Positions 1,157-34,840 of a stretch of DNA of 34,840 nt are shown piece by piece. Every line of letters begins with the position of its first letter. Positions within the stretch are counted from its first letter, which is position 1. Position numbers and translations under genes: made by a program. Below the pieces are notes generated by a model, which worked only from the letters and a program-made list of their open reading frames with translations, did no database searches and was not told the origin of the DNA. The stretch comes from Caulobacter sp. (GTDB lineage Bacteria; Pseudomonadota; Alphaproteobacteria; Caulobacterales; Caulobacteraceae), in contig JAQGIK010000007.1 of the NCBI GenBank assembly GCA_028291265.1, positions 1 through 34,840 on the forward strand, written 5' to 3'.

Positions 1157-1177
1157 TGAGGGGTCGTCCTTGAGAAA

Positions 1178-1933
1178 TCAGTGCGAGAGCGACGGCGGAT
1201 TGGGATCGGGCGTGCGGCGCACGTCGTCCAGGATCTTGCCGTCCTCGATGTGGATCACCCGGTCGGCATAGGCCTCCAGGCGGGGGTCATGGGTGACGCA
1301 GATCACCGCCGCGCCATGCTCGGTCGCGGCGCGGCGCAGCAGGCGGATGACGATCTGGCCGTTCTCGCCGTCCAGGGCCGAGGTCGGCTCGTCGGCGAAG
1401 ATCAGGTCGGGATTCTTGGCCAGGGCGCGGGCGATAGCCACGCGTTGCTTCTCGCCACCCGACAGTTCGGACGGCCGCTGGTTGATCTTCGGGGTCAGGC
1501 CGACCTCGTCGAGGGCCAGCAGGGCGCGGCGGCTGGCCTCGGCCGGCGAGGCGCCCTGGTATTTGAGGGCGGTCATCACCTGCTGCTTGGCGGTCAGGGC
1601 CGGGAACAGGTTGAAGCCCTGGAAGATGAAGCCGCAATGATCCAGCCGGAACTTGTCGATCCGGCCAGAGGACATGTCCCACAGGCTGCGCGCCTCCAGC
1701 GCCGAGACCGTGCCCTCGTCAGGCTCCAGCAGGCCCGACAGCGCCGCCACCAGCGTCGACTTGCCGGAGCCGGACGGCCCCATGACCATGGTGACATCGC
1801 CGTGGCGGGCGTCGAAGTCCACGCCCTTGAGCACCTCGATGAAGGTCTTGCCGGTCTTGAATCGCTTCACGATTCCCTTGGCCTGCAAGGCGATCTCGCC
1901 CAGCTTGTGGCCGTTGGTCTTCTGGGCGCTCAT
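1178..1933 (-). CDS. ABC exporter ATP-binding protein (DevA/LolD/MacB-like)
   Basis: This 251-residue ATPase powers the exporter. All nucleotide-binding motifs are intact: Walker A GPSGSGKST at residues 52-60, Q-loop in GFIFQGFNLFP, signature LSGGEKQRVAIARAL, Walker B LIFADEPTSALD and H-loop VTHD. The reading frame stays open upstream to 2245, but that extension overlaps the permease in another frame and has shadow-like composition. The ATG at 1933 is therefore chosen: it starts the conserved protein and overlaps the permease stop in an ATGA (1930-1933), a typical translational-coupling arrangement. The extended FQGFNLFP and the MacB-like spacing put it with exporters that handle lipids, lipoproteins or small molecules rather than importers. 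No substrate-binding protein is nearby, which agrees with export. Confidence 0.92.
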   Translation of the reverse strand: MSAQKTNGHKLGEIALQAKGIVKRFKTGKTFIEVLKGVDFDARHGDVTMVMGPSGSGKSTLVAALSGLLEPDEGTVSALEARSLWDMSSGRIDKFRLDHCGFIFQGFNLFPALTAKQQVMTALKYQGASPAEASRRALLALDEVGLTPKINQRPSELSGGEKQRVAIARALAKNPDLIFADEPTSALDGENGQIVIRLLRRAATEHGAAVICVTHDPRLEAYADRVIHIEDGKILDDVRRTPDPNPPSLSH

Positions 1934-3150
1934 CGCAGCAGATCCGCCGGTTGGCTGTTCTTCAGGACGCCGAGGGACAGCAGTCCCGACAGCATGGCGA
2001 TCAGCAGCAAGAACAGCGCGATGGCGGTGACGATGGGAAGGGGAAAAGCCATGGGCAGCCCGCCAAGGGACGCCAGCCCAGACACCGCCCAGGTTAGCAC
2101 CCCCGACATGCAGATGCCGACCACGCCGACCCAGAAGCTCAGCTCCATGACGATGACCCGCAGGCTGCCCATCGATACGCCAAGGGCCCGCAGCGAGGCG
2201 AATTCCTTGATGTTGGCCATGATCGCCCCGCGCAGGGTCTGCCACGTGATGGCGATGCCGATCACCGCGCCCATGATGACGGCGAAGATCAGGATGACGC
2301 TGATGAACTGCTCCTTGAACAGGGCGCTCTCGTTGGCGTCGGCCAGTTCCTGGCGGGTCCAGGCCCGAAACTTGCCGTCGCCGAGCTTGTTGAGTTGGGC
2401 GGCCACGATCTCGGCCCGGGCGGGGTCGGCGATCTTGACCATCAGCGGGCTGACTCGGGGACCGCTGTCGGCCTCGCCCAGCATCCCCAGGCTGTCGCGC
2501 GACATCACGATGGTGGCGTTCATCATGTTGGGATAGCCGGTGGTCACCGCGGCGATAGTGATCGTCTTGCCGTTGTAGATGGCCTTGTCGCCCAGCTTGA
2601 CGCCAAGGCGTCCCAGCGCCGTCTCGTCGACCGCTACGGCGTAGGGCTGGCGCAGGGTCTCGACCAGTTCGTCGCTGTAGTCGGTCGGCACGGTGACCCG
2701 TCCGGGGGCGGCATCGATCACCCGGACCTGAACGAATTCCATCTTGCGGTTCGTCGGCCCGCCGGGCGGGGCGTTCAGTTGCTCTTCGGGCGGAATGATA
2801 TTCTGGAAGCGGCCACCCGAACTATCCATGGTTGCCACCTCGACGACCTCAGGATGTCCGATGACCACCGGCATCAGTCGTCTCGGCAAGCCCGACGGTC
2901 CGCCGTTGAACAGCGCCGTGGCTCCAGGGCCCAGAACCATGATGTCGGCGCGGGAACGGTCGATCTGGGCAGTGAAGCCCTTGCCGATGCCCATGAACAT
3001 GCCGACGAAGGCCAGCACAAGCAGCCCGGAAAACGCCAGGGCGACGACGGCCGCCATGTAGCGCCGCCATTCGTAGATCAATGTAGCCAAAGCGAGCGAC
3101 ATAGGCGCCTGCAACCCTCCCGAACTGACCCCGGGTATGGACGACAGCAT
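1930..3150 (-). CDS. ABC exporter permease, FtsX/DevC-like
   Basis: This 406-residue inner-membrane permease has the FtsX/MacB/DevC topology. There is one N-terminal membrane helix (about 35-57, AAVVALAFSGLLVLAFVGMF), a large periplasmic domain (about 60-275), then three C-terminal helices (about 280-305, 330-355 and 370-395). The start at 3150 has a strong GGAGGGGGG ribosome-binding site. An internal ATG at 3102 (MSLALATLIYEW) also has a GGGAGGG upstream and matches where family members usually begin, so the first 16 residues may not be translated. It is the first gene of the permease-ATPase-adaptor operon and is transcribed divergently from the S46 peptidase gene. The shared upstream region (3151-3274) must hold both promoters. 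Confidence 0.88.
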   Translation of the reverse strand: MLSSIPGVSSGGLQAPMSLALATLIYEWRRYMAAVVALAFSGLLVLAFVGMFMGIGKGFTAQIDRSRADIMVLGPGATALFNGGPSGLPRRLMPVVIGHPEVVEVATMDSSGGRFQNIIPPEEQLNAPPGGPTNRKMEFVQVRVIDAAPGRVTVPTDYSDELVETLRQPYAVAVDETALGRLGVKLGDKAIYNGKTITIAAVTTGYPNMMNATIVMSRDSLGMLGEADSGPRVSPLMVKIADPARAEIVAAQLNKLGDGKFRAWTRQELADANESALFKEQFISVILIFAVIMGAVIGIAITWQTLRGAIMANIKEFASLRALGVSMGSLRVIVMELSFWVGVVGICMSGVLTWAVSGLASLGGLPMAFPLPIVTAIALFLLLIAMLSGLLSLGVLKNSQPADLLR

Positions 3151-6894: not shown

Positions 6895-8013
<1,119 letters not shown>

Positions 8014-8463: not shown

Positions 8464-9507
8464 TCAGAGCAGGAGCGGCGTCAGCAAGGCCTGGCGAGCG
8501 GCTTTCAGGAAGACGCTCGGCAGAGCGTCGAGGCCCTTCATCGGCGTCCAGACCACATCGGCGGCCTCGCCTTCCGCCCAAAGCACCCGCAGCGTCAGCG
8601 AGAAGTGGGTGAAGACGTGTTCGATCTCACCCGCCTCGCGCCACACCACATCAGCCGGCGCGCCCTGCAACACCGTCGGCGGCGCGACCGTCCAGTCGCT
8701 GGTCGGCAGACCTAGCATGCCGCCGAGAAGGCCCTTGTCCGGGCGGCGAACCAGGGCGACCTCGTCACCGTGCGTGAGGACATAGGCGATGCCGTAGCGC
8801 CGCGGCCGAGCCGCCTTCTTCGTCTTGCGTGGAAACGTGCCCTGGTCGCCGCGCGCGAAGGCGGCGCAGTGCATCGACACCGGGCAGCGGTCGCAGAGCG
8901 GTGACTTCGGTTTGCAGACGGTGGCGCCGAGATCCATCAGGGCCTGGGCCCAATCTCCTGGGCGGTGGCCGTCGACAAGGTCGCCGGCCAGGGCCTTCAG
9001 GCGCGGCTTGCTGTCCGGCAACGGTTCCTCGACGGCGAACAGGCGGCTCATCACCCGCTCGACATTGCCGTCGACGACGTTGGCGGCGCGGTCGAAGGCG
9101 ATGGCGGCGACGGCGGCGGCGGTGTAGGCGCCGACCCCCGGCAGGGCGCGCAGGCTCTCCTCGGTGTCCGGAAAGACGCCGCGGTGCTGACCGGCCACGG
9201 CGCGGGCGCAGGCCAGCAGGTTGCGGGCCCGGGCGTAGTAGCCGAGGCCCGCCCAGGCGGCCATCAGGTCGCCGTCCTCGACGTTGGCGAGATCGATCAC
9301 GGTCGGCCAGCGGCGGGTGAAGCTGAGAAAATAGGGCGTGGCGTGCGGCACGGTGGTCTGTTGCAGCATCACCTCCGACAGCCAGACCCGGTAGGGGTCG
9401 GCGCGGACCCCGGCGGCATGGTCGCGCGGTCGGACGCGCCAGGGCAGGTCGCGGGCGTTATCGTCGTACCAGGCCAGCAGGCGGGCGCGTAAGTCGGCGG
9501 TGTTCAC
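8464..9507 (-). CDS. mutY: MutY, A/G-specific adenine DNA glycosylase
   Basis: This 347-residue base-excision repair enzyme removes adenine mispaired with 8-oxoguanine. Catalytic Glu45 lies in SEVMLQQTTV. The helix-hairpin-helix is LPGVGAYTAAAVAAIAF (about 122-138) and is followed by Asp146 in VVDGNVERV. The 4Fe-4S ligands are Cys198, 205, 208 and 214 (spacing 6-2-5). A C-terminal NUDIX-like 8-oxoG recognition domain follows (about 230-345, YVLTHGDEVALVRRPDKGLLGGMLGLP). The frame continues open to 10107, antisense to the YceI gene, but the protein homology begins at VNTADLRARLLAWYDDNARD. GTG at 9507 is the nearest start codon and lacks a strong ribosome-binding site. It is convergent with the SMI1-like gene and divergent from the YceI gene. 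Confidence 0.95.
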   Translation of the reverse strand: MNTADLRARLLAWYDDNARDLPWRVRPRDHAAGVRADPYRVWLSEVMLQQTTVPHATPYFLSFTRRWPTVIDLANVEDGDLMAAWAGLGYYARARNLLACARAVAGQHRGVFPDTEESLRALPGVGAYTAAAVAAIAFDRAANVVDGNVERVMSRLFAVEEPLPDSKPRLKALAGDLVDGHRPGDWAQALMDLGATVCKPKSPLCDRCPVSMHCAAFARGDQGTFPRKTKKAARPRRYGIAYVLTHGDEVALVRRPDKGLLGGMLGLPTSDWTVAPPTVLQGAPADVVWREAGEIEHVFTHFSLTLRVLWAEGEAADVVWTPMKGLDALPSVFLKAARQALLTPLLL

Positions 9508-9616
9508 GGATGCGGACCTAGCACGCGGCGAAGTTTTTTCGAGGGGCGGTGTCGGAACCGGCTTGTACCCTGCGTCCTCAGTGTCGAAGACCGGACACAA
9601 CGAAGGAAGCCCAGTC

Positions 9617-10309
9617 ATGCGTCGCTCGCTCACCGCCCTCCCCGTCCTGATCCTCTTGGCCGCCTGCCAGCCCGGCGGCAAGCCGGCCGAAACGCCGAAG
9701 GCGGAGACCGCGGCTCCGGCCGCCCCGGCCCCGGATCTGCTGCCCGGCGCGTACAGGATCGACCCCGACCACACGACCATCCTCTTCCGGGTCGACCACA
9801 TCGGCATGTCGAATTTCACCGGCCAGTTCCGCAAGGTCGACGCCAGCCTGGTGCTGGACCCCAAGAACCCGGAGGCCTCCTCCATCGTCGCCGACATCGA
9901 CGTCGCCTCGCTGAGCACCAACGTCCAGGTGTCGCCGGGCTTCGACGCGACCCTGACCGGACCCGAGTGGCTGGACGGCGGGGCCCACCCGAAGATCACC
10001 TTCAAGTCGACGAAGGTGACCAAGACCGGGCCGGACACCGCCGACGTCGCCGGCGACTTCACGCTGAAGGGCGTCACCAGGCCGGTGGTGCTGAAGGCCA
10101 GGTTCAACAGCGGCTACAAGCCCAACGCCATGGACGGGGCCCGCATCGGCTTCTCGGCGACCACCAGCTTCAAGCGGTCCGACTTCGGGATCAGCTATGG
10201 CGTCCCGGCTCCGGGCACCAAGATGGGCGTCAGCGACGAGGTCCAGGTGATCATCGAGACCGAGTTCACCCAGGGCAAGCCGACCGGCGAACCCATGCCG
10301 GCGCACTAG
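9617..10309 (+). CDS. YceI-family lipoprotein
   Basis: This is a 230-residue protein of the YceI lipocalin-like family, which bind isoprenoid-type lipids in the periplasm. The N-terminus is a lipoprotein signal (MRRSLTALPVLILLAAC, lipidated Cys17), followed by a Pro/Ala-rich tether (about 18-44) and the YceI domain (YRIDPDHTTILFRVDHIGMSNFTG onward). Typical family segments are DIDVASLSTN, GPEWLDGGAHPKITFKSTKV and GDFTLKGVTRPVVL. The ATG at 9617 is preceded by GAAGGAAG and directly starts the signal; an upstream in-frame ATG at 9500 is rejected. The cytochrome b561 that often partners YceI proteins is not adjacent, although a b561 gene lies at 17579. The ligand cannot be predicted from sequence. 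Confidence 0.92.
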   Translation: MRRSLTALPVLILLAACQPGGKPAETPKAETAAPAAPAPDLLPGAYRIDPDHTTILFRVDHIGMSNFTGQFRKVDASLVLDPKNPEASSIVADIDVASLSTNVQVSPGFDATLTGPEWLDGGAHPKITFKSTKVTKTGPDTADVAGDFTLKGVTRPVVLKARFNSGYKPNAMDGARIGFSATTSFKRSDFGISYGVPAPGTKMGVSDEVQVIIETEFTQGKPTGEPMPAH

Positions 10310-23801: not shown

Positions 23802-24937
23802 AACCTGCCTGCGTCACCGACTACCGGGAGCTGGCCAAGCGGCGCATCCCGGGCGTGCTGTTCGACTACATCGACGGCGGCTCCTATGCCGAGGAGACGC
23901 TTCGCCGGAACACCGCCGACTTCCAGGAGCTGGCCCTGCGCCAGCGGGTGATGAAGGACGTCTCGCAGATCTCGCTGTCGACCGAGCTGTTCGGCCAGCA
24001 GCTGTCGATGCCGGTTGTGCTGTCGCCGATCGGCATGGCCGGCATGTACGCCCGCCGCGGCGAGGTGCAGGCGATGAAGGCGGCGAAGGCGGCCGGGGTG
24101 CCGATGTGCCTGTCGTCGCTGTCGATCTGCGACGTCGCCGAGGTGACCCGGGATGGCGGGGCGGCGCCCTGGTACCAGCTCTACATCATCAAGGACCGCG
24201 GCTACATGAAGGCCCTGCTGGAGCGGGTCAGCGAGCTGGGCAGCCCGGTGGTGGCCTTTACCGTCGACCTGCCGGTGCCCGGAGCCCGGTACCGGGACGT
24301 GCGGTCGGGCCTGTTCGGGGCGACCTCGCCGTTCGTGGGCCTGCAGCGGGCCTGGGACGGCGTCACCCATCCCGACTGGCTGTTCGACGTCATGCTGGGC
24401 GGCGGTCCGCACACTTTCGGCAACCTGGCCCCGGCCATCCCCGAGGCCAAGGGGGTGATGGAGTTCTGGCCCTGGGTGACCAAGAACTTCGACCCGACCC
24501 TGACCTGGAAGGATCTCGACTGGATCCGCCAGCACTGGAAGGGGCCGCTGGTCATCAAGGGGGTGCTCGATCCCGAGGATGCCAAGGAAGCCGCGCGCTG
24601 CGGAGCTGACGGCCTGGTCGTCTCCAACCATGGCGGACGGCAGCTGGATGGGGTGCTGAGCGGCATCCGCGCCCTGCCCCCTATCGCCGACGCCGTGGGC
24701 GACCAGCTGACCGTGCTGATGGACGGCGGCGTGCGTTCGGGGCTGGACGTGGTCAAGGCGCTGGCCAGCGGGGCCAAGGGCTGTTTCCTCGGCCGGGCCT
24801 GGGCCTACGCCCTGGCGGCCCGCGGCGAGGCGGGCGTCGCCCATGTGCTGCAGATTCTCCGCCAGGAGATGATGATGGCCATGGCCCTGACCGGCTGCAC
24901 CGACGTCAAGGACGCTGACCGAAGCCTGTTGGCCTAA
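23798..24937 (+). CDS. lldD: FMN-dependent L-lactate dehydrogenase / alpha-hydroxy-acid oxidase
   Basis: This is a 379-residue TIM-barrel flavoenzyme that oxidises L-lactate (or a related 2-hydroxy acid) to the keto acid, passing electrons to the quinone pool or oxygen. Family motifs: FDYIDGGSYAEETLRRN with the active-site Tyr region (about 22-38), SPIGMAGMYARRGEVQAMKAA (FMN contacts), WYQLYIIKDRGYMKALLERV, and SNHGGRQLDG with catalytic His278 and Arg281. The C-terminal phosphate-binding segment is VLMDGGVRSGLDVVKALASGAKGCFLGRAW. The length and the ALTGC tail match LldD. ATG 23798 overlaps the previous stop (ATGA). The stop TAA overlaps the convergent DUF72 stop within CTAA. Glycolate oxidase or mandelate dehydrogenase are alternatives. 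Confidence 0.92.
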   Translation: MKPACVTDYRELAKRRIPGVLFDYIDGGSYAEETLRRNTADFQELALRQRVMKDVSQISLSTELFGQQLSMPVVLSPIGMAGMYARRGEVQAMKAAKAAGVPMCLSSLSICDVAEVTRDGGAAPWYQLYIIKDRGYMKALLERVSELGSPVVAFTVDLPVPGARYRDVRSGLFGATSPFVGLQRAWDGVTHPDWLFDVMLGGGPHTFGNLAPAIPEAKGVMEFWPWVTKNFDPTLTWKDLDWIRQHWKGPLVIKGVLDPEDAKEAARCGADGLVVSNHGGRQLDGVLSGIRALPPIADAVGDQLTVLMDGGVRSGLDVVKALASGAKGCFLGRAWAYALAARGEAGVAHVLQILRQEMMMAMALTGCTDVKDADRSLLA

Positions 24938-25668
24938 AGCCGGCCCTTCAGCGCCAGGGCGTCGGCCGCCGCCGCGCCGGAGGCGGTGTTGTCGAAGATG
25001 CACCAGGCGTCTGCAGGACCGGAGGTCAAGGCCTTGGCCAGGCCATCGAGCCGTTCCGGCTCGTAGGGCGAGAAGTACATGCGCGGCGAGCCATGCAGGC
25101 GCCAGTAGGCGAAGTCCGGCCAGCCGCCGGGCGTGGCCGCCATCGGATGCGGCGCGGGATCGGCGGCGACGCGGGCGATGCGGTGGTCGATGAGCAGGCG
25201 CTCGGGCTCGTCGTCAAACCAGCTGGCATGGCGCGGCTCGATGGCGACCCGCCCCTCCCAGACAGCGCGCAGGTCGTCGAAGAAGGTCCGGGCGACGGCC
25301 GGATCGAACGTCAGGCTCGGCGGCAGCTGGACGAGCAGCGGTCCCAGGCGGTCCCCGAGCCCCGACACCTCGGCGGCGAAATCCCGCAGCAGGCCGGCGC
25401 AATCGGCCAGCCGGGCCTCATGGGTGATGGTCTTGCGCAGCTTGACGGCGAAGCGGAAGCCGGGCGGCACGCTGTCCCGCCAGCGGGCGTAGATGGCCAG
25501 CTTGTGAGGCCGATAGAAGGTGCTGTTGATCTCGGCGCAATCGAGGCGGTCGGCATAGCGCTGCAGGCCCGTACCCTCGGTTGGAAACTGGCCGGCGACC
25601 GCGCGCGGCACAGCCCAGCCCGCCGTTCCGATCCTGATCTCGCCTGGCTTGCTCATCAATGGATGCAA
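24934..25668 (-). CDS. DUF72 family protein (TIM-barrel-like)
   Basis: This is a 244-residue soluble protein of the DUF72 (YecE) family. Recognisable segments are IRIGTAGWAVP, the EINSTFYRPH signature, FAVKLRKTITHEARL, LGPLLVQLPPSLTFD, VAIEPRHASWFDDE and YWRLHGSPRMYFSPYEPERLDGL, ending in the family's AWCIFDNTASGAAAADALAL. The biochemical role is unknown; the fold resembles sugar-isomerase/endonuclease-IV-like TIM barrels. The ATG at 25668 gives MHPLMSKPGE; the second ATG at 25656 is an equally good start. Its stop is shared with lldD in CTAA. The gene lies after the rpmB terminator, so it should have its own promoter in the short gap 25669-25700. Confidence 0.88.
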   Translation of the reverse strand: MHPLMSKPGEIRIGTAGWAVPRAVAGQFPTEGTGLQRYADRLDCAEINSTFYRPHKLAIYARWRDSVPPGFRFAVKLRKTITHEARLADCAGLLRDFAAEVSGLGDRLGPLLVQLPPSLTFDPAVARTFFDDLRAVWEGRVAIEPRHASWFDDEPERLLIDHRIARVAADPAPHPMAATPGGWPDFAYWRLHGSPRMYFSPYEPERLDGLAKALTSGPADAWCIFDNTASGAAAADALALKGRL

Positions 25669-25700
25669 GCCGCCACGGCGCCGTCAGGTTCCGGACATGC

Positions 25701-25730
25701 AAAACGGCCCGCGAGTCGCCTCGCGGGCCG
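25701..25730 (-). terminator. Intrinsic terminator of rpmB
   Basis: A perfect 11-bp stem CGGCCCGCGAG / CTCGCGGGCCG (25705-25715 and 25720-25730) has a 4-nt loop. Read on the minus strand it is followed by TTTT. It lies 25 nt after the rpmB stop. Confidence 0.9.
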
Positions 25731-25755
25731 CTTCGAAATCTTCAGAAGCCGTGGC

Positions 25756-26052
25756 TTAAGCCGCGGCCTGTTCGGCCAGCTTGGCCTTGACCTGACGCTT
25801 GATCTTCAGGGCGCGGGGCGAGAGGTCCTCGTCCTTCAGCTTGACGATCACGGCGTCTAGGCCGCCCCGGAAGTCCAGGGTGCGCAGCGCGGCGTTGGTG
25901 ATCCGCAGCTTGAACGACTGGCCGAGCACGTCCGACACCAGGGTGGCGGGCGACAGGGCCGGCAGGAAGCGGCGCTTGGTCTTGATGTTCGAATGGCTCA
26001 CGTTGTGGCCGACCATCGGGCCGACACCGGTGAGTTCGCAACGACGCGACAT
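25756..26052 (-). CDS. rpmB: 50S ribosomal protein L28
   Basis: This is a 98-residue large-subunit ribosomal protein. The conserved N-terminus MSRRCELTGVGPMVGHNVSHSNIKTKRRF and the KLRITNAALRTLDFRGGLDAVIVK core are diagnostic of L28. No zinc-binding CXXC pairs are present, so this is the zinc-independent type. ATG 26052 has GAAGG 9 nt upstream; a longer frame to 26103 is rejected because it adds residues absent from the family. It has a good sigma70-type promoter (26115-26143) and an intrinsic terminator, so it is transcribed alone. Its usual partner rpmG is not adjacent, as is normal in alphaproteobacteria. Confidence 0.98.
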   Translation of the reverse strand: MSRRCELTGVGPMVGHNVSHSNIKTKRRFLPALSPATLVSDVLGQSFKLRITNAALRTLDFRGGLDAVIVKLKDEDLSPRALKIKRQVKAKLAEQAAA

Positions 26053-26114
26053 GATAGAACCTTCGCAATAGAATTTCGGGCGCGCCAGGGAGGCCCTGCG
26101 CACGAGAGGGGCGT

Positions 26115-26143
26115 CTATAGGGGTAAGGGCGGGGAAACGTCAA
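26115..26143 (-). promoter_or_regulatory. rpmB promoter, housekeeping type
   Basis: On the minus strand TTGACG (26143-26138) and CTATAG (26120-26115) are separated by exactly 17 nt. They are close to housekeeping -35 and -10 boxes and lie 62 nt or so before the rpmB start, consistent with strong ribosomal-protein transcription. Two GACTC (GANTC) sites lie just upstream at 26154 and 26166. Confidence 0.75.
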
Positions 26144-26268
26144 CCCTTTGGGGGACTCTCAAATCGACTCAGCGCGCCTCTGGCGAGAGAACACTTCAGC
26201 CGCCATTCATGCGCCGCCATTATGGAACAGGACTGCAAGACCGACGCTCTGGAACTCCAGAAGGACCT

Positions 26269-26730
26269 ATGCCCGATATGATCCGCCCGGCCGCCATCAT
26301 CGCCACAGTCGCCCTGCTGGCCATCCCGGCCGTCGCCTCCAGCCAGGCGACGAACACCATCCTGCCCGGCTACTGGGAATACCGCAGCAAGGTCAGCTAC
26401 GGGGTCTCCTCGAGCAGCGTCGAAAAGAAGTGCGTCGAGCCCAAGGACATCGACAAGTTCTTCAGCGGCCCCAGCAATCGCCACTACAAATGCACCTACC
26501 CGACCCGCAACGTGGCGAACGGCAAGGCCGAGTTCCAGGGCACCTGCGTCGACAAGCGCGGGCGCACGGCGCAGGTCACCGCGTCCGGAACCTACAGCCC
26601 CAAGCACTTCACCCTGAACGCCAGAATCAAGACCAGCATCATCGGCGTGCCAATCACCCCGACCGGTTCGATCGACGCGACCTGGATCGGCCAGACCTGC
26701 CCGCCCAAGCCGCCGAAGAAGGCCAAGTGA
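26269..26730 (+). CDS. Secreted DUF3617 family protein
   Basis: This is a protein of about 153 residues with an N-terminal signal peptide (IRPAAIIATVALLAIPAVASSQA). It has the DUF3617 layout: a PGYWEYRSKVSY strand after the signal, KKCVEPKDIDKFF with the first conserved cysteine, HYKCTYPTR, FQGTCVDKRGRTAQVTASGTYSP, and a C-terminal WIGQTCPPKP. Four cysteines suggest two disulfides in the periplasm. No function is known for the family. ATG 26269 and ATG 26278 are both possible: AAGGA lies 3 nt before the first and 12 nt before the second, so neither spacing is ideal. It is divergent from rpmB, with the shared control region at 26053-26268. Confidence 0.83.
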   Translation: MPDMIRPAAIIATVALLAIPAVASSQATNTILPGYWEYRSKVSYGVSSSSVEKKCVEPKDIDKFFSGPSNRHYKCTYPTRNVANGKAEFQGTCVDKRGRTAQVTASGTYSPKHFTLNARIKTSIIGVPITPTGSIDATWIGQTCPPKPPKKAK

Positions 26731-26735
26731 CTTCT

Positions 26736-26823
26736 GAGTCTTGTGGTTAATCGGCGTTAAGATACAATAGCTTGTAGGGAACAAATGCCGAATCGGACGA
26801 AGTCGCCGATTCGGTCCCGATTC
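26736..26823. promoter_or_regulatory. Cluster of four GANTC sites before the amidohydrolase gene
   Basis: GAGTC (26736), GAATC (26790), GATTC (26808) and GATTC (26819) lie within 88 bp, 118-205 nt before the chosen start at 26941. Two of them sit in the arms of an inverted repeat CCGAATCGG / CCGATTCGG (26788-26796 and 26806-26814, 9-nt loop). TTAA-TCGGCG-TTAA (26747-26760) is CtrA-like but with a 6-nt gap. Together these suggest CcrM-dependent control; the 26731-26877 stretch holds no gene. Confidence 0.6.
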
Positions 26824-26940
26824 GTTTCGCGCCTGTTCGCGTGCGCCAGCCCTCGTCGTTAACCCCGCTCCCCCGAAGTGCCCGCTGATCGCGTGGCGTG
26901 CTATCGTCCGCGAAACAACGACTCTCTCCGGGGCCATCCC

Positions 26941-28638
26941 TTGCACAAGTTCCTCCGCCCACTGGCCGCCATCGGCGCCCTGATCCTTGTCGGCTGCTCG
27001 GCCCAGGCGGGGACCGCCGACGGCGACGACTTCCTGATGTTCGGCGGGCCGATCTTCAGCGACGGCGGCGCGGCCCAGGCCGATGGCTCGACCCAGGTCA
27101 TCCCGGCCGAGGCGTTGGTGGTTCGCGACGGCAAGGTGGTGTTCGCCGGCGATCTGGCCGCCGCCCGGGCCCAGGCCAAGGGCCTGCCGCTGATCGACCT
27201 GAAGGGCGCGGCCGCCTACCCGGGCTTCATCGACAGCCATGTGCATCTGACCGGTGTGGGCCTGCGCGAAATGACCCTCAACCTCGACCAGGTGAAGTCG
27301 GTCGCTGAACTGACAGAGGCCGTGAAGGCCTGGAATGCCGCGCACCCGGGCGCCGAGCCGTTGACCGGCCGGGGTTGGATCGAGACCCACTGGCCGGAGA
27401 AGCGATTCCCCAACCGCGCCGACCTCGACGCCGTCGTCGCCGACCGCGCCGTCGTGCTGGAGCGGTCGGATGGCCACGCGGTGGTGCTGAACAGCGTCGC
27501 GCTGACGCTCGCGGGCATCACCAGGGACAGCAAGGACCCCAGCGGCGGCCGCATCGAGCGCGACGCCGCCGGCGAGCCGACCGGTATGCTGATCGACAAC
27601 GCCCAGGGCCTGATCGGCGCCAAGCTGCCGCCGCTGAGCTACGCCCGCCGGCGCGAGGCGCTGGAGAAGGCGGTCAACCTCTACGCCGCCCGCGGCTGGA
27701 CCGGCGGGGCCAACATGAGCACCGAGGCGGACGACGTGAGGGTGCTGTTCGAGCTGGCCGCCGAGAAGAAGCTGCCGATCACCGTCGACGTCTTCATGAC
27801 GCCCGAGGATTCGGCCGAGGTCCTGCGCCGCGGTCCCTACAGCGACCCGACCGGCATGGTCCGGGTACGCGGGGTGAAGCTCTACATGGACGGCGCGCTC
27901 GGCTCGCGCGGGGCCCTGCTGCTGGCCCCCTACAGCGACCAGCCGGCGACCAGCGGCCTGCAGATCGCCCAGCACGACGAGGCGCTGGGGATCATGAAGC
28001 AGGCCCTGAAGGTCAAGGCCGACATCGCCTTCCACGCCATCGGCGACAGGGGCAACCGCCAGGCGCTGGACTGGATGGCCGAGGCCTTCGCCAGCGATCC
28101 GGCCGCTGCGAAAAAGGTGCGCTGGCGCATCGAGCACAGCCAGATCGTCAACCCCGCAGACATCCCGCGCTTCCGCCAACTGGGCGTCGTCGCCTCCATG
28201 CAGCCCTCGCACGCCATCGGCGACCTCTACTTCGCCCCGGCGCGGCTCGGTCCCGACCGGCTGAAGGGCGCCTATGCCTGGCGCAGCCTGACAACCAGCG
28301 GGGCCCTGGTCATCGGCGGCACCGACGCGCCGGTCGAGGTCGGCGACCCGCGGATCGAGTTCTACGCCGCCGCCGTGCGCAAGGACCTCAAGGGCGACTC
28401 GGGTCCCGACTGGCATCCCGAAGAGGCGCTGAACCGCGTCCAGGCCCTGGCCCTGTTCACCGTCAATCCGGCCCAGGCCGACCACCGCCCCGAAGGCTGG
28501 GGTCGGCTGGTCGCCGGCAGCCCGGCCAACATCACCGTCTTCTCCCGCGAGCTCCTCACCGCCGCCGACGCCGACATCATGAAGGCGACGCCGGTGCTGA
28601 CGGTGGTCAGGGGCCGGACCGTCCACGACGCCCGCTAG
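26941..28638 (+). CDS. Amidohydrolase-family (YtcJ-like) lipoprotein
   Basis: This is a 565-residue metal-dependent hydrolase of the Amidohydro_3 (YtcJ) group. An N-terminal lipoprotein signal has Cys19 (GALILVGCSAQ). The metal-binding HxH is at His100/His102 (GFIDSHVHLTG). Other family residues are VFMTPEDSAEVL, VKLYMDGALGSRGALL, the FHAIGDRGNRQALD His and the late IGGTDAPVEVGDPRIEF Asp. The C-terminal propeller strand is GRLVAGSPANITVF. No good ATG exists; TTG 26941 starts the signal directly and has CGGGG upstream, while the longer GTG start (26878) adds a non-signal stretch. The gene is preceded by the GANTC cluster. Its stop overlaps the convergent RTX gene stop in CTAG. The natural substrate is unknown. 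Confidence 0.87.
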   Translation: MHKFLRPLAAIGALILVGCSAQAGTADGDDFLMFGGPIFSDGGAAQADGSTQVIPAEALVVRDGKVVFAGDLAAARAQAKGLPLIDLKGAAAYPGFIDSHVHLTGVGLREMTLNLDQVKSVAELTEAVKAWNAAHPGAEPLTGRGWIETHWPEKRFPNRADLDAVVADRAVVLERSDGHAVVLNSVALTLAGITRDSKDPSGGRIERDAAGEPTGMLIDNAQGLIGAKLPPLSYARRREALEKAVNLYAARGWTGGANMSTEADDVRVLFELAAEKKLPITVDVFMTPEDSAEVLRRGPYSDPTGMVRVRGVKLYMDGALGSRGALLLAPYSDQPATSGLQIAQHDEALGIMKQALKVKADIAFHAIGDRGNRQALDWMAEAFASDPAAAKKVRWRIEHSQIVNPADIPRFRQLGVVASMQPSHAIGDLYFAPARLGPDRLKGAYAWRSLTTSGALVIGGTDAPVEVGDPRIEFYAAAVRKDLKGDSGPDWHPEEALNRVQALALFTVNPAQADHRPEGWGRLVAGSPANITVFSRELLTAADADIMKATPVLTVVRGRTVHDAR

Positions 28639-31600
28639 AGCAGCCAGTCCTCCTTCGGCGCTTCCGCCGGCATCGGGGAAGCGGTGATGAAGTCGGCGGC
28701 GCTCAGGCTGGAAGCCTGGACGCCGGTCAGGATGACATAGCCACCGTCGGCGAAGATCACCTTGGCTCCGGCCGCCAACTGGCCGATGGAGCTGTAAGCC
28801 CCGCCGTAGCCGGTGGTATCGATCAGGTCGATGCCGTCCTGGAAGTCGGCGATGGTGTTGGCGCCGTCTCCGGTCGCCAGCACGAAGACGTCCGCTCCGG
28901 TCCCGCCAGTCAGGGTATCCTGACCCGCCCCGCCCACCAGCACATCGTCGCCGTCGCCGCCGTTCAGCTTGTCGGCGCCGTTGCCGCCTTCCAGCCGGTC
29001 GGCCCCGCCCAGCCCGTTCAGAGTGTCGTTGCCGTCCAGGCCCTGGATGGTTTCCCGCCGTTCGTCGCCGGTGAGGGTATTGGCCCCGGCCGTGCCGGTC
29101 AGGGTCCGCTCGTCCCCGACCGGAGGCGGCGGTGGCGGCGGGGGCGGCGCAGGCGCCGGTCCGCCGATGAAGTTGGCCGCTGTCAGGGTGGCGCCGTCGA
29201 CATCCATCAGCAGCACTGACCCGCCGTCGGCAAAGGTCAGCACGGCGCCCTCCGCAGTCTGTGACAGCGTGTAGGCGCCCGCCATGGCCGCGACCTCCAG
29301 CCGGTCCTGCAGGGCATAGAAGTCGACGATGGTGTCGTGGCCGTCGCCGGGGGCGAAGATGAAAATGTCCTCGCCCGCGCCGCCGACCAGCAGGTCGTCG
29401 CCCTTGTCGCCGGAGAGGGTGTCGTCGCCGGCGCGGCCTTCGACAAGGTCGGCGCCGGCGCCGGCGTAGAACAGGTCGTTGCCGCCCTTGCCCTGGATCC
29501 AGTCGCGCTGGACGAAGGTGTTGCCGGGAGCGCCGACGGTGCTGTCGCTGTCGTTCGCCGATTGGGTCAAGCCGGCGTAGTAGCCGTACACCGGGTGCGG
29601 CTCCGGCGGCGGCGGCGGTGGCGGCAGGCCGATGAAGGCGGCCGGCGTCAGGTCGGCGGCCTGGATGCCGGTCAGGATGACGTAGCCGCCGTCGCTGAAC
29701 AGCACCTTGGCTCCGGCGGCCAGTTGGGCAATCGACTGATAGCCGCCGTAGGCCGTCACATCGATGCGATCGACGCCCAGTTCGAAGTCGGCGACGGTGT
29801 TGGCCCCGTCGCCGGGCCCGAAGGTGAAGACGTCGATCCCGGCACCGCCGGTCAGGGTGTCCTGACCCGCGCCGCCGATCAGCACGTCGTCGCCATCGCC
29901 GCCGAACAGCTTGTCGGCGCCGTCGCCGCCCTCGAGCCGGTCACGTCCGCCCAGGCCGTTCAGCGTGTCGTTGCCGCCCAGGCCCTGGATCAGTTCGGCG
30001 CGGCCATCGCCGCTCAGGGTGTTGGCCGAGGCTGTGCCGGTCAGGGTGCGCTCAGGCGTGATCGGCGGCGGTCCCGGCGGCGGCGGAGGCGGCGGCGGCG
30101 GCGGCGGGGCTGGCGGCGGGATCGGCGGTGCGGGCGGGGGCGGCGGCACGGGCGGATTGTTGATGAAATTGGCCGCCGACAGGTGGGCGGGCTGGACACC
30201 GAACAGGGTGACGTAGCTGCCGTCGATGAAGATCACCCGGGCGTCGGCGTCCTCGGTCAGGATGATCGAGGCGTAGCCGCCGAAAGCGCTGACGTCGATC
30301 CGGTCCTGAGCGACCGAGAAGTCGTTGATGCTGTTGCGGTCGTCGCCCGGCCGGAAGACGAAGGTGTCAGCGCCGGCCCCGCCGGTCAGGCTGTCGGCGC
30401 CCTTGCCGCCGATGAGGATGTCGTCCCCGTCGCCGCCAAAGAGCTTGTCGCCGCCATCGCTGCCTTCGAGGCGGTCGTTGCCGCCGAGGCCGTTGAGGGT
30501 GTCGTTGCCGGCCAGGCCCCTGAGGATCTCGGCTCGCGCGTCGCCGTCGATCGTGTTGGCTCCCGCCGTGCCGTGCAGCAGCCGGTCATAGACGGGCGGC
30601 TCCGCCGGAGGGGGTGGCGGAGGCGGTGGCGGCGGAGGGGGCGGCGGCGGAGGTGGTGGAGGCGGTGGTGGCGGCGGCGGCGGTGGTGGAGAAGGCGGCG
30701 GCAGCGTTGGCGGCGGGCTGGCCGTGGTGATGAAGTTCTCCGCGGTCAGGCTGCTCGCCTGCACGCCGGTCAGGGTGACATAGCCGCCGTCGGCGAACAT
30801 CACCCGCACGCCGGCGCCGGTCTGCACCAGCGAGGAATAGCCGCCCCAGGCGCTGACATCGATCCAGTCCTCGGTCGCGTTGAAGTCACTGATGGCGTTG
30901 TTTCCGTCGCCGGGACCGAAGACGAAGATGTCGTAGCCGGCGCCGCCGGACATGTTGTCGGTGCCGGCGCCGCCGACGATGACGTCGTCCCCGTCGCCGC
31001 CATAGAGCTTGTCGCTGCCGTCGCCGCCCTCGAGGCGGTCGGCGCCGGCGAGGCCGTTCAGGGTGTCGTTGCCGCCGAGCCCCTGGATGGCCTCGGAACG
31101 GCCATCACCGGTCAGGGTGTTGGCGGCGACCGTCCCCGTCAGCGTCCGCTCGTAGGTCGGCGTCGCCGGCATCGGGCCGTGCGGCGGCGGCGGCGGGGGT
31201 GGAGGCGGCGGGGGCGGCGGAGGGGGTGGCGGAGGCGGTGGCGGCGGAGGCGGAGGCGGGGGTGGCGCGGTCGGCGGGGGCGGGGGTGGCGGCGGAGGCG
31301 GCGGGAGCGTGTTCGGCAGAGCGAAGTTGCCGTCGCCGAGGCTGCCGGCGGCGACGTTCTGCAGTCGCAGCGTTCCGCCGCCCGTCAGGTTGAACAGGGT
31401 GTCGGCTCCGTCGGCGATGCGGGACTGCCATTCTTCGAGCGAGGACAGGATCACCTTGTCGACGGCCACGTCGAAGTCGGTGACCAGGTCGGCGCCGCCG
31501 TCAGCGTCGAGCACGACCACGGTGTCGGCGCCGGCGCCGAGCGTCATGACGTCGTCGCCGCCATAGCCGCGCAGGAGGTTGGCGCCGCCATCACCGGTCA

Positions 31601-32219
31601 GGGTGTCGTTGAAATCGGAGCCGTAGATATTCTCCACGCTTACCAGGGTGTCGCCTTGGGCGTGGCCGCCCAGAGCTGGACCGCCAAGGGTCACGCTGAC
31701 GGCCGCATTGGACAGGCGGTAGTCGACCGTATCGGCGCCGGCGCCGCCGTTCATCTGATCGGCGCCCAGCGAACCGGCCATTATGTCATCGCCGCCCAGC
31801 CCGATCAGATCGTTCTCGTCGGCATCGCCGTACAGCAGATCGCCGACCGAACTTCCGACGTCGTCGAGGGCGAAAGCGGTATTGCGGGTTATATAGAACG
31901 GACCAAAGGAGAGGCTCTCATCATAGAAAGGCCACCAGGTGCTGTAGAGCCGCAGGTCTCCATCGATATCAAGAAGGTAGTCATCATTGTAAGCCGGGGT
32001 ATAGAATATACCGATCTCATATCCGAAATCATTATATTGATTATATGCATTCCCATGCACGATATCCAAGGTTTCGACCGCGTTTCCCCACACCACGAAG
32101 ACTTCGAATGTCTCGCCCGGCGTGCTTCCGATGACGAAGAAGGTGGCGGTGTTGGCGACGCCGGTTTCGTCCTCGATCGTGAGCCCCCAGCCCGTACCGA
32201 ATTGAATGATGGTCGCCAC
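28635..32219 (-). CDS. Giant RTX protein: six calcium-binding modules joined by polyproline linkers
   Basis: This is a protein of about 1194 residues. Residues 1-125 form an aromatic-rich N-terminal domain that I do not recognise. Six RTX regions follow, each with GGxGxDxxx nonapeptides (for example GGDGDDVLIGGAGQDTLTGG) that bind calcium as parallel beta-rolls: about 128-304, 355-500, 545-687, 725-865, 880-1018 and 1036-1185. Most open with RTLTGTxxANTLxGD and close with a FADGGYVxLTGVQA segment. Between them are five proline linkers: about 306-346 (P11-TA-P28), 511-538 (P28), 690-722, 865-875 and 1020-1034. GTG 32219 has GGGAG 6 nt upstream and is preferred to GTG 32237. RTX proteins leave by type I secretion, but no transporter genes are nearby. 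A surface or matrix protein is likely. Confidence 0.9.
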   Translation of the reverse strand: MATIIQFGTGWGLTIEDETGVANTATFFVIGSTPGETFEVFVVWGNAVETLDIVHGNAYNQYNDFGYEIGIFYTPAYNDDYLLDIDGDLRLYSTWWPFYDESLSFGPFYITRNTAFALDDVGSSVGDLLYGDADENDLIGLGGDDIMAGSLGADQMNGGAGADTVDYRLSNAAVSVTLGGPALGGHAQGDTLVSVENIYGSDFNDTLTGDGGANLLRGYGGDDVMTLGAGADTVVVLDADGGADLVTDFDVAVDKVILSSLEEWQSRIADGADTLFNLTGGGTLRLQNVAAGSLGDGNFALPNTLPPPPPPPPPPPTAPPPPPPPPPPPPPPPPPPPPPPPPPPPPHGPMPATPTYERTLTGTVAANTLTGDGRSEAIQGLGGNDTLNGLAGADRLEGGDGSDKLYGGDGDDVIVGGAGTDNMSGGAGYDIFVFGPGDGNNAISDFNATEDWIDVSAWGGYSSLVQTGAGVRVMFADGGYVTLTGVQASSLTAENFITTASPPPTLPPPSPPPPPPPPPPPPPPPPPPPPPPPPPPPPAEPPVYDRLLHGTAGANTIDGDARAEILRGLAGNDTLNGLGGNDRLEGSDGGDKLFGGDGDDILIGGKGADSLTGGAGADTFVFRPGDDRNSINDFSVAQDRIDVSAFGGYASIILTEDADARVIFIDGSYVTLFGVQPAHLSAANFINNPPVPPPPPAPPIPPPAPPPPPPPPPPPGPPPITPERTLTGTASANTLSGDGRAELIQGLGGNDTLNGLGGRDRLEGGDGADKLFGGDGDDVLIGGAGQDTLTGGAGIDVFTFGPGDGANTVADFELGVDRIDVTAYGGYQSIAQLAAGAKVLFSDGGYVILTGIQAADLTPAAFIGLPPPPPPPEPHPVYGYYAGLTQSANDSDSTVGAPGNTFVQRDWIQGKGGNDLFYAGAGADLVEGRAGDDTLSGDKGDDLLVGGAGEDIFIFAPGDGHDTIVDFYALQDRLEVAAMAGAYTLSQTAEGAVLTFADGGSVLLMDVDGATLTAANFIGGPAPAPPPPPPPPPVGDERTLTGTAGANTLTGDERRETIQGLDGNDTLNGLGGADRLEGGNGADKLNGGDGDDVLVGGAGQDTLTGGTGADVFVLATGDGANTIADFQDGIDLIDTTGYGGAYSSIGQLAAGAKVIFADGGYVILTGVQASSLSAADFITASPMPAEAPKEDWLL
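30606..30689 (-). repeat. Polyproline-28 triplet tract (linker 2)
   Basis: These 84 nt encode 28 consecutive prolines (residues 511-538). Codons are a mixture of CCG, CCC, CCT and CCA rather than one pure triplet. Positions 30607-30638 are identical to 31219-31250 in linker 1. Translation of this run should need elongation factor P. Confidence 0.9.
31182..31306 (-). repeat. Polyproline tract P11-TA-P28 (linker 1)
   Basis: This encodes residues 306-346 of the RTX protein: eleven prolines, Thr-Ala, then 28 prolines. Codons are mixed, all CCN. The tract shares a 32-nt identical block with linker 2, which indicates duplication or gene conversion between linkers. The triplet bias makes it prone to length changes. 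Confidence 0.9.
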
Positions 32220-32271
32220 GGCGCGCTCCCAATCCACCCACGGTCAGCCGCCGCAGAGCCCATTTCGGGGA

Positions 32272-32299
32272 AATATACCACAGGTTGAGCTCTGACCAA
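32272..32299 (-). promoter_or_regulatory. Candidate promoter of the RTX gene
   Basis: On the minus strand TTGGTC (32299-32294) and TATATT (32277-32272) are 16 nt apart, about 50 nt upstream of the GTG start. ATTTC-GGG-GAAAT (32262-32274), a perfect 13-bp dyad, overlaps the -10 edge and the likely start of transcription, so a repressor could act there. The divergent helicase gene begins at 32442; the rest of the gap 32300-32441 shows one GANTC site (32413). Confidence 0.5.
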
Positions 32300-32441
32300 G
32301 CTGCGCTTGAACACGGTTCCGCGATGCATTTGCCGGCGCCGCAGGAACAATTGCGCCCAAGCCGCGATTGATCGTCACCTGATCGCGCGGAGGACCATCT
32401 CGATGCTTGCCCGACTCGCACCCGCGCCCCACCTATAGGTC

Positions 32442-34840
32442 ATGAGTGACCGCTCGACCGGCCAGGCGCCGGCCCGGCTTACGGCCGTTCTGGGGCCAAC
32501 CAACACCGGCAAGACGCATCTGGCCGTCGAGCGGATGTGCGGCCACGCCAGCGGCATGATCGGCCTGCCCCTGCGCCTGCTGGCGCGGGAGATCTACGAC
32601 CGGGTGGTGGCGCTGAAGGGCGTCCGTGAGGTGGCGCTGATCACCGGCGAGGAGAAGATCGTCCCGCCGCGCGCCAACTATTTCATCTGCACCGTCGAGG
32701 CCATGCCGCTGGGCCGCGAGGTCGAGTTCATGGCCATCGACGAGATCCAGCTGTGCACCGATCCCGAGCGCGGCCACGTCTTCACCCACCGGCTGCTGCA
32801 TGCGCGCGGCAAGTTCGAGACCATGCTGCTGGGGGCCGGCACCATGGCCAACCTGATCCGCCGGCTGCTGCCCAAGGCGGAGATCGTGACGCGGGAGCGG
32901 TTCTCCTCCCTGACCTACGCCGGACCCAAGAAGCTGACCCGCCTGCCGAGGCGCAGCGCCGTCGTCGCGTTCAGCGCCGACCAGGTCTACGGCATCGCCG
33001 AGCTGATCCGCCGCCAGCGGGGCGGCGCGGCGGTGGTCATGGGCAGCCTCTCCCCCCGCACCCGCAACGCCCAGGTCGCCCTCTACCAGTCGGGCGAGGT
33101 CGACTTCCTCGTGGCCACCGACGCCATCGGCATGGGGCTGAACATGGACGTCGACCATGTCGCCTTCGCGGGCCTGCGCAAGTTCGACGGCAAGCGGAGC
33201 CGCTGGCTGCACGCCACCGAGATCGCCCAGATCGCCGGCCGGGCCGGCCGCTATCGCCGCGACGGCACCTTCGGGGTGACCGGCGAGGCCGACGACATCG
33301 ACGAGGACCTGGTCGAACGGGTCGAGAACCACCAGTTCGAGCCGATCACCACGGCCGAATGGCGCAACAGCCGCCTCGACTTCACCAGCCTGACGACCCT
33401 GATCAAGACCCTGGACGAGGCCCCGCAACGCGAGGGCCTGAAGCTGTCGGCCGAGGCGCTGGACGAGCTGACCCTGAAGCGGCTGGCCGAGGACCCCGAC
33501 ATCGCCCACCGCGCCAAGGCGAGGCCGCAGCTGGAGAAGCTGTGGGAGGTCTGCCAGACGCCCGACTTCCGCAAGATCGCCAGCGACGATCACCTCAACC
33601 TGCTGCGCCGCATCTTCAACGAGCTGACCAGCGGCCGGCGGCGCATTCCCGACGACTGGATGGCCGGCCAGTTCGCCACCCTCGACCGCACCGATGGCGA
33701 GATCGACGCCCTGGCCGGGCGGCTGGCGGCGGTGCGCACCCTGTCCTACGTCGCCAACCGGCCCGACTGGCTGCACGACCCGGCCTTCTGGCAGGCGACC
33801 ATGCGCCAGCTGGAGGACAGGCTCAGCGACACCCTGCACGAGAAGCTGATGGCCCGCTTCGTCGACCGGCGGACCAGCGTGCTGATGCGCCAGCTGGGCG
33901 ACCGCGAGGCCATGCTGGCCGGCGTCGCCGAGGACGGCACGGTGACCGTCGAGGGCCACTATGTCGGCAGGCTGCAGGGCGTGGTCTTCGACCAGCCCAA
34001 GGCCATCACCAGCCTCGAGGAAAAGGCCCTGCGCGGCGCCGCTCAACGCGCCGTGGCGCCGGAGGTGGCCAGGCGCCTGGGCGCCTTGGCCGCCGAGGAC
34101 GACGAGGCCTTCAGCCTGACGCCCGACGGCATGGTGCTGTGGCGTGGCGCGGCGGCCGGGCGGCTCGATGCGGCCGGCAAGGTCAAGCTGCTCGGCGAGC
34201 TCGGTCCCGCGCCAGCCCGTGAGCGGGCCCAGCGGCGGCTGGAGGCCTGGCTGGCCCATGAGCGGGCCCGCAAGCTGTCGCCCCTGGCGGCGTTGGAGAC
34301 GGCGATGAGCGAAGGCGGCTTGCGCGGCCTGGCCCGGGGCCTCGCCCACCGCCTGCTGGAGACCGGCGGCGTCCTGCCCCGCCGCCAGGTCGAGGCGGAG
34401 ATGAAGGTGCTCAGCCAGGCCGAGCGCCGGGCCCTGCGCAGTCTCGGCGTGCGCATCGCCGCCTTCAGCCTGCACCTGCCGGGCCTGCTGACCGAGGAGG
34501 CCCAAGCCTTCGCCCAGTCGCTGAACGCCGACACCGCCGGGCCGCCCCCCGGCAAGGTCAGCCGGCTGCAGCCGGGGCCGGTCGACGCCAAGGGGCTGTC
34601 GGCCCGGGGCCTGATGGCGGTCGGCGGCCTGGCCGTGCCGGTCGACCAGCTGGAACGGCTGGATGAGGCCCTGCGGGCGGCGCCGCAGAAGGCCGGCGGC
34701 TCGGTCGTGTCCGACGCCCTGCTCGAAGGGCTGGGCTTGAGCGCCAAAGACGCCGCCGACATCCTGCGCGGCCTTGGCCTGGCGCCGGTCAACCGCGACT
34801 ACCCCATCGCCTGGAGGCGGCGCGGCGCCGCCAGGGCCGC
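32442..34840 (+). CDS. SUV3-like superfamily II DEAD/DEAH-related helicase (3' end outside window)
   Basis: This gene runs open to the window edge, so only the first 799 residues are seen. Helicase motifs: Walker A GPTNTGKT (18-25), the Walker B variant DEIQ (100-103) in FMAIDEIQLC, GAGTMANLIRRL, FSADQVYGIAELIRR, the motif V-like VATDAIGMGLNMDVDHVAF, and motif VI QIAGRAGR (263-270). DEIQ with QIAGRAGR is typical of the SUV3 family, mitochondrial RNA helicases whose alphaproteobacterial relatives are common. The C-terminal half is Ala/Leu/Arg-rich, with EFEPITTAEWRNSRLDF-type family sequence and no recognised extra domain. ATG 32442 has a weak AGG before it. It is divergent from the RTX gene. 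The role is probably RNA turnover or unwinding; the cellular target is not known. Confidence 0.93.
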   Translation, partial: MSDRSTGQAPARLTAVLGPTNTGKTHLAVERMCGHASGMIGLPLRLLAREIYDRVVALKGVREVALITGEEKIVPPRANYFICTVEAMPLGREVEFMAIDEIQLCTDPERGHVFTHRLLHARGKFETMLLGAGTMANLIRRLLPKAEIVTRERFSSLTYAGPKKLTRLPRRSAVVAFSADQVYGIAELIRRQRGGAAVVMGSLSPRTRNAQVALYQSGEVDFLVATDAIGMGLNMDVDHVAFAGLRKFDGKRSRWLHATEIAQIAGRAGRYRRDGTFGVTGEADDIDEDLVERVENHQFEPITTAEWRNSRLDFTSLTTLIKTLDEAPQREGLKLSAEALDELTLKRLAEDPDIAHRAKARPQLEKLWEVCQTPDFRKIASDDHLNLLRRIFNELTSGRRRIPDDWMAGQFATLDRTDGEIDALAGRLAAVRTLSYVANRPDWLHDPAFWQATMRQLEDRLSDTLHEKLMARFVDRRTSVLMRQLGDREAMLAGVAEDGTVTVEGHYVGRLQGVVFDQPKAITSLEEKALRGAAQRAVAPEVARRLGALAAEDDEAFSLTPDGMVLWRGAAAGRLDAAGKVKLLGELGPAPARERAQRRLEAWLAHERARKLSPLAALETAMSEGGLRGLARGLAHRLLETGGVLPRRQVEAEMKVLSQAERRALRSLGVRIAAFSLHLPGLLTEEAQAFAQSLNADTAGPPPGKVSRLQPGPVDAKGLSARGLMAVGGLAVPVDQLERLDEALRAAPQKAGGSVVSDALLEGLGLSAKDAADILRGLGLAPVNRDYPIAWRRRGAARA

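What the first reader, a model, noticed from the sequence alone, without database searches (positions are those of the whole stretch)
28635..32219. RTX protein with six modules held apart by extreme polyproline rods
Seen: six RTX modules alternate with five proline-rich linkers, two of which contain 28 uninterrupted prolines. Known: long polyproline forms rigid PPII helices and stalls ribosomes without EF-P, and RTX repeats fold only in calcium after type I secretion. Inference: the protein is a calcium-hardened, beads-on-rods extracellular fibre or holdfast/biofilm component, and its synthesis should be very sensitive to EF-P. This combination is the most unusual architecture in the window.
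Basis: partly seen in the sequence, partly recalled or inferred. Interest (0 to 1): 0.75.

Follow-up and report, generated by a model that had tools for sequence, protein, structure and literature searches.

The report
Secreted RTX beads on polyproline rods
This bacterial gene encodes a probably secreted protein made of six calcium-binding-type beads joined by runs of up to 28 prolines in a row, and it belongs to a family of such proteins in a few Caulobacter-like bacteria, some of them headed by enzymes, which gives a natural test case for how cells make and use extreme polyproline.

The parts
28635..32219 (-). six-bead polyproline RTX protein, 1194 aa, GTG start
   Evidence: translation; start favoured by the G060 relative
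31845..32219 (-). N-terminal head (residues 1-125), no known family
   Evidence: no Pfam hit there, no protein hit at E<=0.001 among 86 candidates, no PDB sequence hit at E<=10 for residues 1-123; found in 1 of the 74 other genus genomes searched, G060
31320..31844 (-). bead 1 (residues 126-300), divergent RTX module
   Evidence: bead profile hit 183-299, 71 bits
31158..31316 (-). linker 1 (residues 302-354), runs P11 and P28
30729..31151 (-). bead 2 (residues 357-497)
   Evidence: 162 bits; modelled
30594..30716 (-). linker 2 (residues 502-542), run P28
30162..30587 (-). bead 3 (residues 545-686)
30054..30155 (-). linker 3 (residues 689-722), runs P5 and P11
29631..30053 (-). bead 4 (residues 723-863)
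   Evidence: 164 bits
29592..29624 (-). linker 4 (residues 866-876), run P7
29166..29510 (-). bead 5 (residues 904-1018), divergent
   Evidence: 108 bits
29121..29159 (-). linker 5 (residues 1021-1033), run P9
28686..29111 (-). bead 6 (residues 1037-1178)
   Evidence: 166 bits; PDB sequence matches to CyaA RTX blocks (E 1e-39, several stretches) and to 2z8x 489-615 (E 2e-11)
28638..28685 (-). C-terminal tail ending in DWLL, like the PrtG-type secretion end (Asp plus three hydrophobics)
   Evidence: similar ending in 21 of 26 polyproline ORFs that reach a stop inside their contig, loose pattern, counted; motif meaning recalled, Ghigo and Wandersman 1994 seen only as a reference in PMC3430570

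Best explanation
The gene encodes a type I-secreted RTX protein in which a head of unknown function is followed by an array of calcium-folding RTX beads separated by polyproline rods. The array works as a modular export and display tail. The C-terminal bead and DWLL end engage a PrtD-type ABC exporter, the chain leaves the cell unfolded, each bead folds when it meets calcium outside, and the stiff proline spacers hold beads and head apart so that they fold and act separately and at a distance. The same tail is carried by a lineage-specific family with different heads, some of them proteases or a glycosidase-like domain. Shown here: the architecture, the family, the fold class of the beads modelled, linker placement outside beads, proline-rich composition with free length, and presence of an exporter and of EF-P genes in the genomes. 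Inferred: secretion, calcium folding, rod stiffness, display and EF-P dependence.
Against: None of the nine window ORFs tested is a PrtD-type exporter; the nearest ABC-type genes in the window are an efflux-like HlyD plus MacB-like set at 164-3150, about 25 kb away. The head has no relative of known function, so a display role for this member is by analogy. The linker is modelled at low to middling confidence (pLDDT blocks 48-79, pTM 0.47), so rod geometry is not shown. The exporter was not tested in genus members that lack the family. Linkers are less pure in C. ginsengisoli (71 of 352 core codons not proline), G066 (17 of 106) and G079 (15 of 198). Orthologous linker lengths differ up to threefold, so no fixed spacing is needed. 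Synonymous differences are close to the level between unrelated paralogues (pS 0.23-0.44 against a median of 0.40), which weakens the dN/dS figures.
Confidence: 0.62

Rival explanations
1. Structural or adhesive fibre: the array itself is the function, a calcium-stiffened extracellular filament, adhesin, S-layer-linked or biofilm component.
Against: Paralogues with the same tail carry enzyme heads. No anchor, holdfast or matrix gene among the nine window ORFs tested. The RsaA match has rmsd about 21 A over both beads, so it shows only a shared RTX fold.
Confidence: 0.22
2. Mutational by-product: CCN triplet expansion at tolerant domain borders, with no selected role for the rods.
For: Lengths change fast (53 vs 16, 42 vs 28 between orthologues); 11 of 41 runs of at least 18 show third-base periodicity at p<=0.05, with clean 7-codon and 2-codon repeats in two, so growth by in-frame tandem duplication is likely. 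CCG is still the commonest linker codon in G000 (49%), as in bacterial low-complexity regions generally (passage of PMC6821194).
Against: Third bases are mixed while the first two stay CC: 0 of 396 non-proline core codons in G018, 15 of 791 in G000 (the definition of a linker favours purity). C. ginsengisoli keeps proline-rich linkers through PPPS/PPPA/PPPV units. CCT plus CCA are 42% of linker prolines in G000 against 7% of other prolines in the same ORFs, more than plain CCG growth would give, though this excess is weak or absent in G041, G066 and G076. Beads of this type in the other genome-contig loci lack such linkers (0 of 101 preceded, 1 of 101 followed).
Confidence: 0.1
3. Translation-timing device: the runs pause ribosomes between beads, so that expression is tied to EF-P activity or proline supply.
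For: Polyproline stalling and EF-P relief are established (abstracts listed); EF-P with a lysine tip is present.
Against: RTX beads are expected to fold only outside in calcium, and type I export is C-terminus first (recalled), so pausing between beads has no obvious folding benefit. C. ginsengisoli has PPPS-type units in the same places, which keeps extension but changes the stall motif.
Confidence: 0.04
4. Assembly artefact in a draft genome: wrong linker lengths or joined genes.
For: G000 is a draft of 198 contigs and four of its 12 family ORFs run into contig ends; the G060 relative is broken in bead 1 and linker 5.
Against: The same architecture is open in G018, a genome held as one contig, and the frame stays open through all five linkers here.
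Confidence: 0.02

Closest known systems
Family I.3 lipases (PML, TliA, LipA), C-terminal secretion/chaperone domain
   Different: One such domain per lipase, no polyproline runs (recalled); here six RTX beads with rods between them
RTX domain of the CyaA adenylate cyclase toxin
   Different: No polyproline in those linkers (recalled); the toxin's catalytic and pore parts have no counterpart in the window protein's Pfam result
Azotobacter AlgE mannuronan epimerases with repeated R-modules
   Same: Repeated RTX modules of about 150 residues; fold matches 2ml1, 2ml2, 2ml3 and 2agm
   Different: Recalled: A and R modules joined by short linkers, no proline runs; no epimerase head here
Serralysins and Caulobacter Sap protease
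   Same: Two G000 paralogues pass the serralysin cut-off; Sap is a precedent of an RTX protease fused to another surface module
   Different: Window protein has no protease; the SapA model is below its cut-off in both paralogues (428 and 363 of 1200 bits)
Proline-rich spacers: cellulase PT linkers, streptococcal AgI/II P-region, algal SPPP rods (recalled)
   Same: Head joined to another module by an extended proline-rich spacer; C. ginsengisoli PPPS units look like the algal ones
   Different: Those are of mixed composition; here pure runs of up to 53 prolines alternate with RTX beads

Membership tests
RTX proteins secreted by type I systems | GGxGxDxUx nonapeptide repeats | tested here: met
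   PF00353 224 bits, 14 stretches; 23 motifs by a loose pattern
RTX proteins secreted by type I systems | calcium beta-roll fold | tested here: met
RTX proteins secreted by type I systems | C-terminal end of PrtG type in sequence (Asp plus hydrophobics) | tested here: met
   ends in DWLL; similar ends in 21 of 26 comparable family ORFs (counted); signal function not shown
RTX proteins secreted by type I systems | secretion by an ABC/MFP/OMP exporter | not testable with these tools
   exporter candidate on another contig; none among nine window ORFs tested
Serralysin (M10) metalloproteases | zinc protease domain and NCBIfam NF035945 cut-off 500 bits | tested here: not met
   window protein 190 bits, best stretch in the repeats; paralogues 590 and 543 pass
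RTX family hemolysins | NCBIfam NF033943 cut-off 1000 bits, beyond the repeats | tested here: not met
   214 bits, best stretch in the repeats; no other Pfam domain over its score
S-layer protein RsaA | global match to the RsaA lattice domain | tested here: inconclusive
Family I.3 lipase | lipase catalytic domain | tested here: not met
   no lipase domain in Pfam; only the C-terminal RTX domain is shared

The most novel reading that the evidence does not exclude
A few lineages of the genus evolved a display platform in which fast-diversifying heads (proteases, a glycosidase-like head, unknown ones) ride on a more slowly evolving array of calcium beads spaced by pure polyproline rods of up to 53 residues, a length-tunable molecular ruler that is also among the hardest natural substrates for EF-P.
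Probability: 0.35. Interest if true: 0.78.

Novelty: new variant of a known kind. Interest (0 to 1): 0.6.

Why it matters
Runs of 20 to 53 prolines in about a dozen predicted secreted proteins of one bacterium would be an extreme natural test of EF-P, of ribosome processivity and of type I export of stiff chains. E. coli, in the passage seen of PMC4218817, has no protein with three or more PPP units. If the rods are spacers, this is a ready-made set of calcium-switchable, length-variable display tails for enzymes, with orthologues that differ in rod length and so allow direct tests of what rod length does.

Tried and rejected
Avoidance of the slippery codon CCC inside linkers: it looked depleted (8.7% against 31% of other prolines in G000), but prolines outside linkers that are followed by C show a similar level (8.2% against 7 of 73), so it is a context effect and was dropped. 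The CCT/CCA excess survives that control in G000 (about 42% against 2 of 73 codons) and stays unexplained.

A lipase-type VTLIG motif in every bead: loose patterns matched only 24 and 27 of 58 beads, so it is not claimed.

Simple homogenisation of beads within a gene: median aa identity 0.50 within genes against 0.53 between genes (45 and 390 pairs), so none in general; only a few same-gene pairs are unusually close.

Structure of the N-terminal head: the single-sequence model failed (mean pLDDT 36) and was not used. Homologues of the head: none at E<=0.001. Promoter and terminator scan of 32150-32500: nothing. Rfam on the whole window: nothing. Plasmid records, query 24000-34840: three weak hits, which map to the helicase.

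RTX remnant at the syntenic site in G018: none seen; the gap matches the window only in the helicase-proximal 45 bases and in a 19-base match at E 0.03.

Printed record: eight library searches listed no paper that by title or abstract describes RTX beads with polyproline runs. Two of them held more papers than were listed (15 of 84, 15 of 67), and only the held open-access library was searched. The RTX review PMC3034196 has 0 occurrences of proline in its main text. Papers were seen as listings, abstracts or passages; only section 26 of PMC3034196 was read in full. PMC12700997 (find) and PMC8277102 (find) gave nothing used here.

Full report
The observation. The minus-strand frame from GTG 32219 to the stop at 28635 encodes 1194 residues without interruption. 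Pfam sees only RTX repeats above its score (PF00353, 14 stretches). A bead profile seeded with module 6 finds modules at residues 183-299, 357-497, 545-686, 723-863, 904-1018 and 1037-1178. Five linkers hold proline runs of 11+28, 28, 5+11, 7 and 9. Shuffling the residues 2000 times never gave a run above 8. The protein has 141 prolines, 124 aspartates, 192 glycines, no cysteine and a calculated pI of 4.05.

A family, not a curiosity. The same search in the window's own genome (G000, 4.35 Mb, 198 contigs) gave 272 matches. In the regions I fetched, 12 ORFs of G000 (window included) carry both RTX repeats and proline runs of at least 6: 41 runs, 15 of them at least 20, the longest 53. Four of the 12 run into contig ends, so the number of genes may be lower. 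G018, a genome of the same genus held as one contig, has 7 such ORFs with 22 runs in the fetched regions, the longest 28. With the last bead as query, 9 of 75 genus genomes (G000 included) match at E<=1e-25. I fetched regions from the eight others: seven have runs of at least 6; the eighth, G060, could not be judged because its contig starts inside the linker. Among named genomes the nearest is Caulobacter ginsengisoli DSM 18695, 69% identity in the bead. G041 is probably the same genome, since two contig lengths are equal. There the linkers are mostly PPPS, PPPA or PPPV units, with some pure runs up to 19.

Rarity elsewhere. Of 101 beads found in RTX ORFs of the other genome-contig loci, none is preceded and one is followed by a polyproline linker. 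One Sphingobium MAG protein has a beta-helix-like head (by eye), 20 prolines and an RTX end, a likely independent case of the same plan. In about 321 kb of G000 and 130 kb of G018 fetched around these genes, 37 and 22 runs of at least 8 lie in RTX ORFs and 2 and 2 outside (this sample was chosen for RTX genes, so it is no genome-wide statement).

How linkers evolve. Of 86 merged linkers with a run of at least 6, 0 are inside a bead, 64 between (ORF ends allowed), 20 touch one side, 2 neither. Composition is held better than length. Non-proline core codons are 0 of 396 in G018, 15 of 791 in G000, 2 of 116 in G065, 0 of 65 in G070, 0 of 13 in G076, 15 of 198 in G079, 17 of 106 in G066 and 71 of 352 in G041 (the definition needs a run of 6, which favours purity). 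Orthologous linkers flanked on both sides by reciprocal best pieces measure 53 against 16, 42 against 28 and 10 against 11 (the only three that met that condition). CCT plus CCA make 42% of 743 linker prolines in G000 against 7% of 363 other prolines in the same ORFs, and 38% of 396 against 12% of 224 in G018; G065, G070 and G079 show it too, G041, G066 and G076 hardly. Growth by in-frame tandem duplication is visible in some (11 of 41 runs of at least 18 at p<=0.05).

Heads. Of four G000 proteins scanned, two have serralysin heads above the curated cut-off (590 and 543 against 500 bits). A G018 member has a GH114-like head just above the gathering score (28.7 against 27). Others begin with long RTX stretches or NSG-repeat regions (by eye). 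Between G000 and G018 heads diverge faster than beads (dN/dS about 0.48-0.66 in four heads, 0.10-0.31 in seven beads; rough, since synonymous sites are far diverged and low-identity alignments inflate dN). The window protein's head of 125 residues has no relative found except in G060, and a single-sequence model of residues 1-305 failed.

This gene's history. G060 has the head beside the helicase on one contig (helicase 95%, head 87% identical) and the last bead beside the amidohydrolase on another (82% and 88%). The first contig ends inside bead 1, the second starts inside linker 5, so the middle is not seen. In G018, G065 and G079 the same two neighbours are about 670, 60 and 180 bases apart, and no RTX sequence is found in the fetched stretches. 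In G041 the helicase was not in the fetched stretch, so that site was not compared. Gain in the G000/G060 line is the simplest reading.

Export and translation. A PrtD-type exporter passes the curated cut-off in 6 of 6 family-bearing genomes searched and in 0 of 14 controls. In G000 it sits with an HlyD-type adaptor and four RTX ORFs on another contig. None of nine window ORFs tested is such an exporter; an HlyD plus MacB-like set lies at 164-3150. The protein ends in DWLL; by a loose pattern 21 of 26 polyproline ORFs that reach a stop within their contig end alike, and so do many RTX ORFs without proline runs (counted). That this is the PrtG-type signal is recalled. EF-P is present in 8 of 8 genomes searched, two of them without the family, and its loop reads PGKG with lysine in G000 and G018, the kind lysylated in E. 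coli (recalled). EF-P is widespread, so this says only that the factor is there.

Reading. A polyproline-spaced RTX array used as a secretion, folding and spacing tail for diverse heads explains the shared tail, the varied heads, linker placement, the composition constraint and the free length. A fibre or adhesin role is the main rival for this member because its head is unknown. A purely mutational origin explains length drift but not purity, placement and lineage restriction. Every functional step beyond sequence and predicted fold is inference.

Noticed in passing
window 6904-8013: DNA methyltransferase with N6_N4_Mtase and RAMA domains, CcrM-like by domain make-up (the name is recalled).
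   Followed up: no
L013:15826-16731 and L013:11530-12492, with look-alikes in L150:13448-14335 and 9247-10167: Small genes with a similar N-terminus (FAAKL motif by eye; HTH_3 found in one of the two scanned) sit beside polyproline-RTX genes in both G000 and G018, a possible linked regulator family.
   Followed up: partly
L046:4414-6564: Sphingobium MAG protein with beta-helix-like head (by eye), 20 prolines and an RTX end, apparently an independent head-rod-RTX protein.
   Followed up: partly
L156:37-1485: G070 ORF in which an unrelated N-terminal part runs through ten prolines into one bead: odd fusion or contig misjoin.
   Followed up: no
L148 (424-aa minus-strand ORF) and the start of L012: Non-RTX ORFs with 9 and 19 prolines followed by a hydrophobic IVIIAA / IVVVAA segment, perhaps a second polyproline protein type.
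   Followed up: no
linkers of G000, G018, G065, G070, G079: CCT and CCA codons are strongly enriched in the proline runs compared with other prolines in the same ORFs; cause unknown.
   Followed up: partly
L189, about 2329-3003: At the syntenic site G018 carries an unrelated small open frame instead of the RTX gene, so this spot looks variable.
   Followed up: partly
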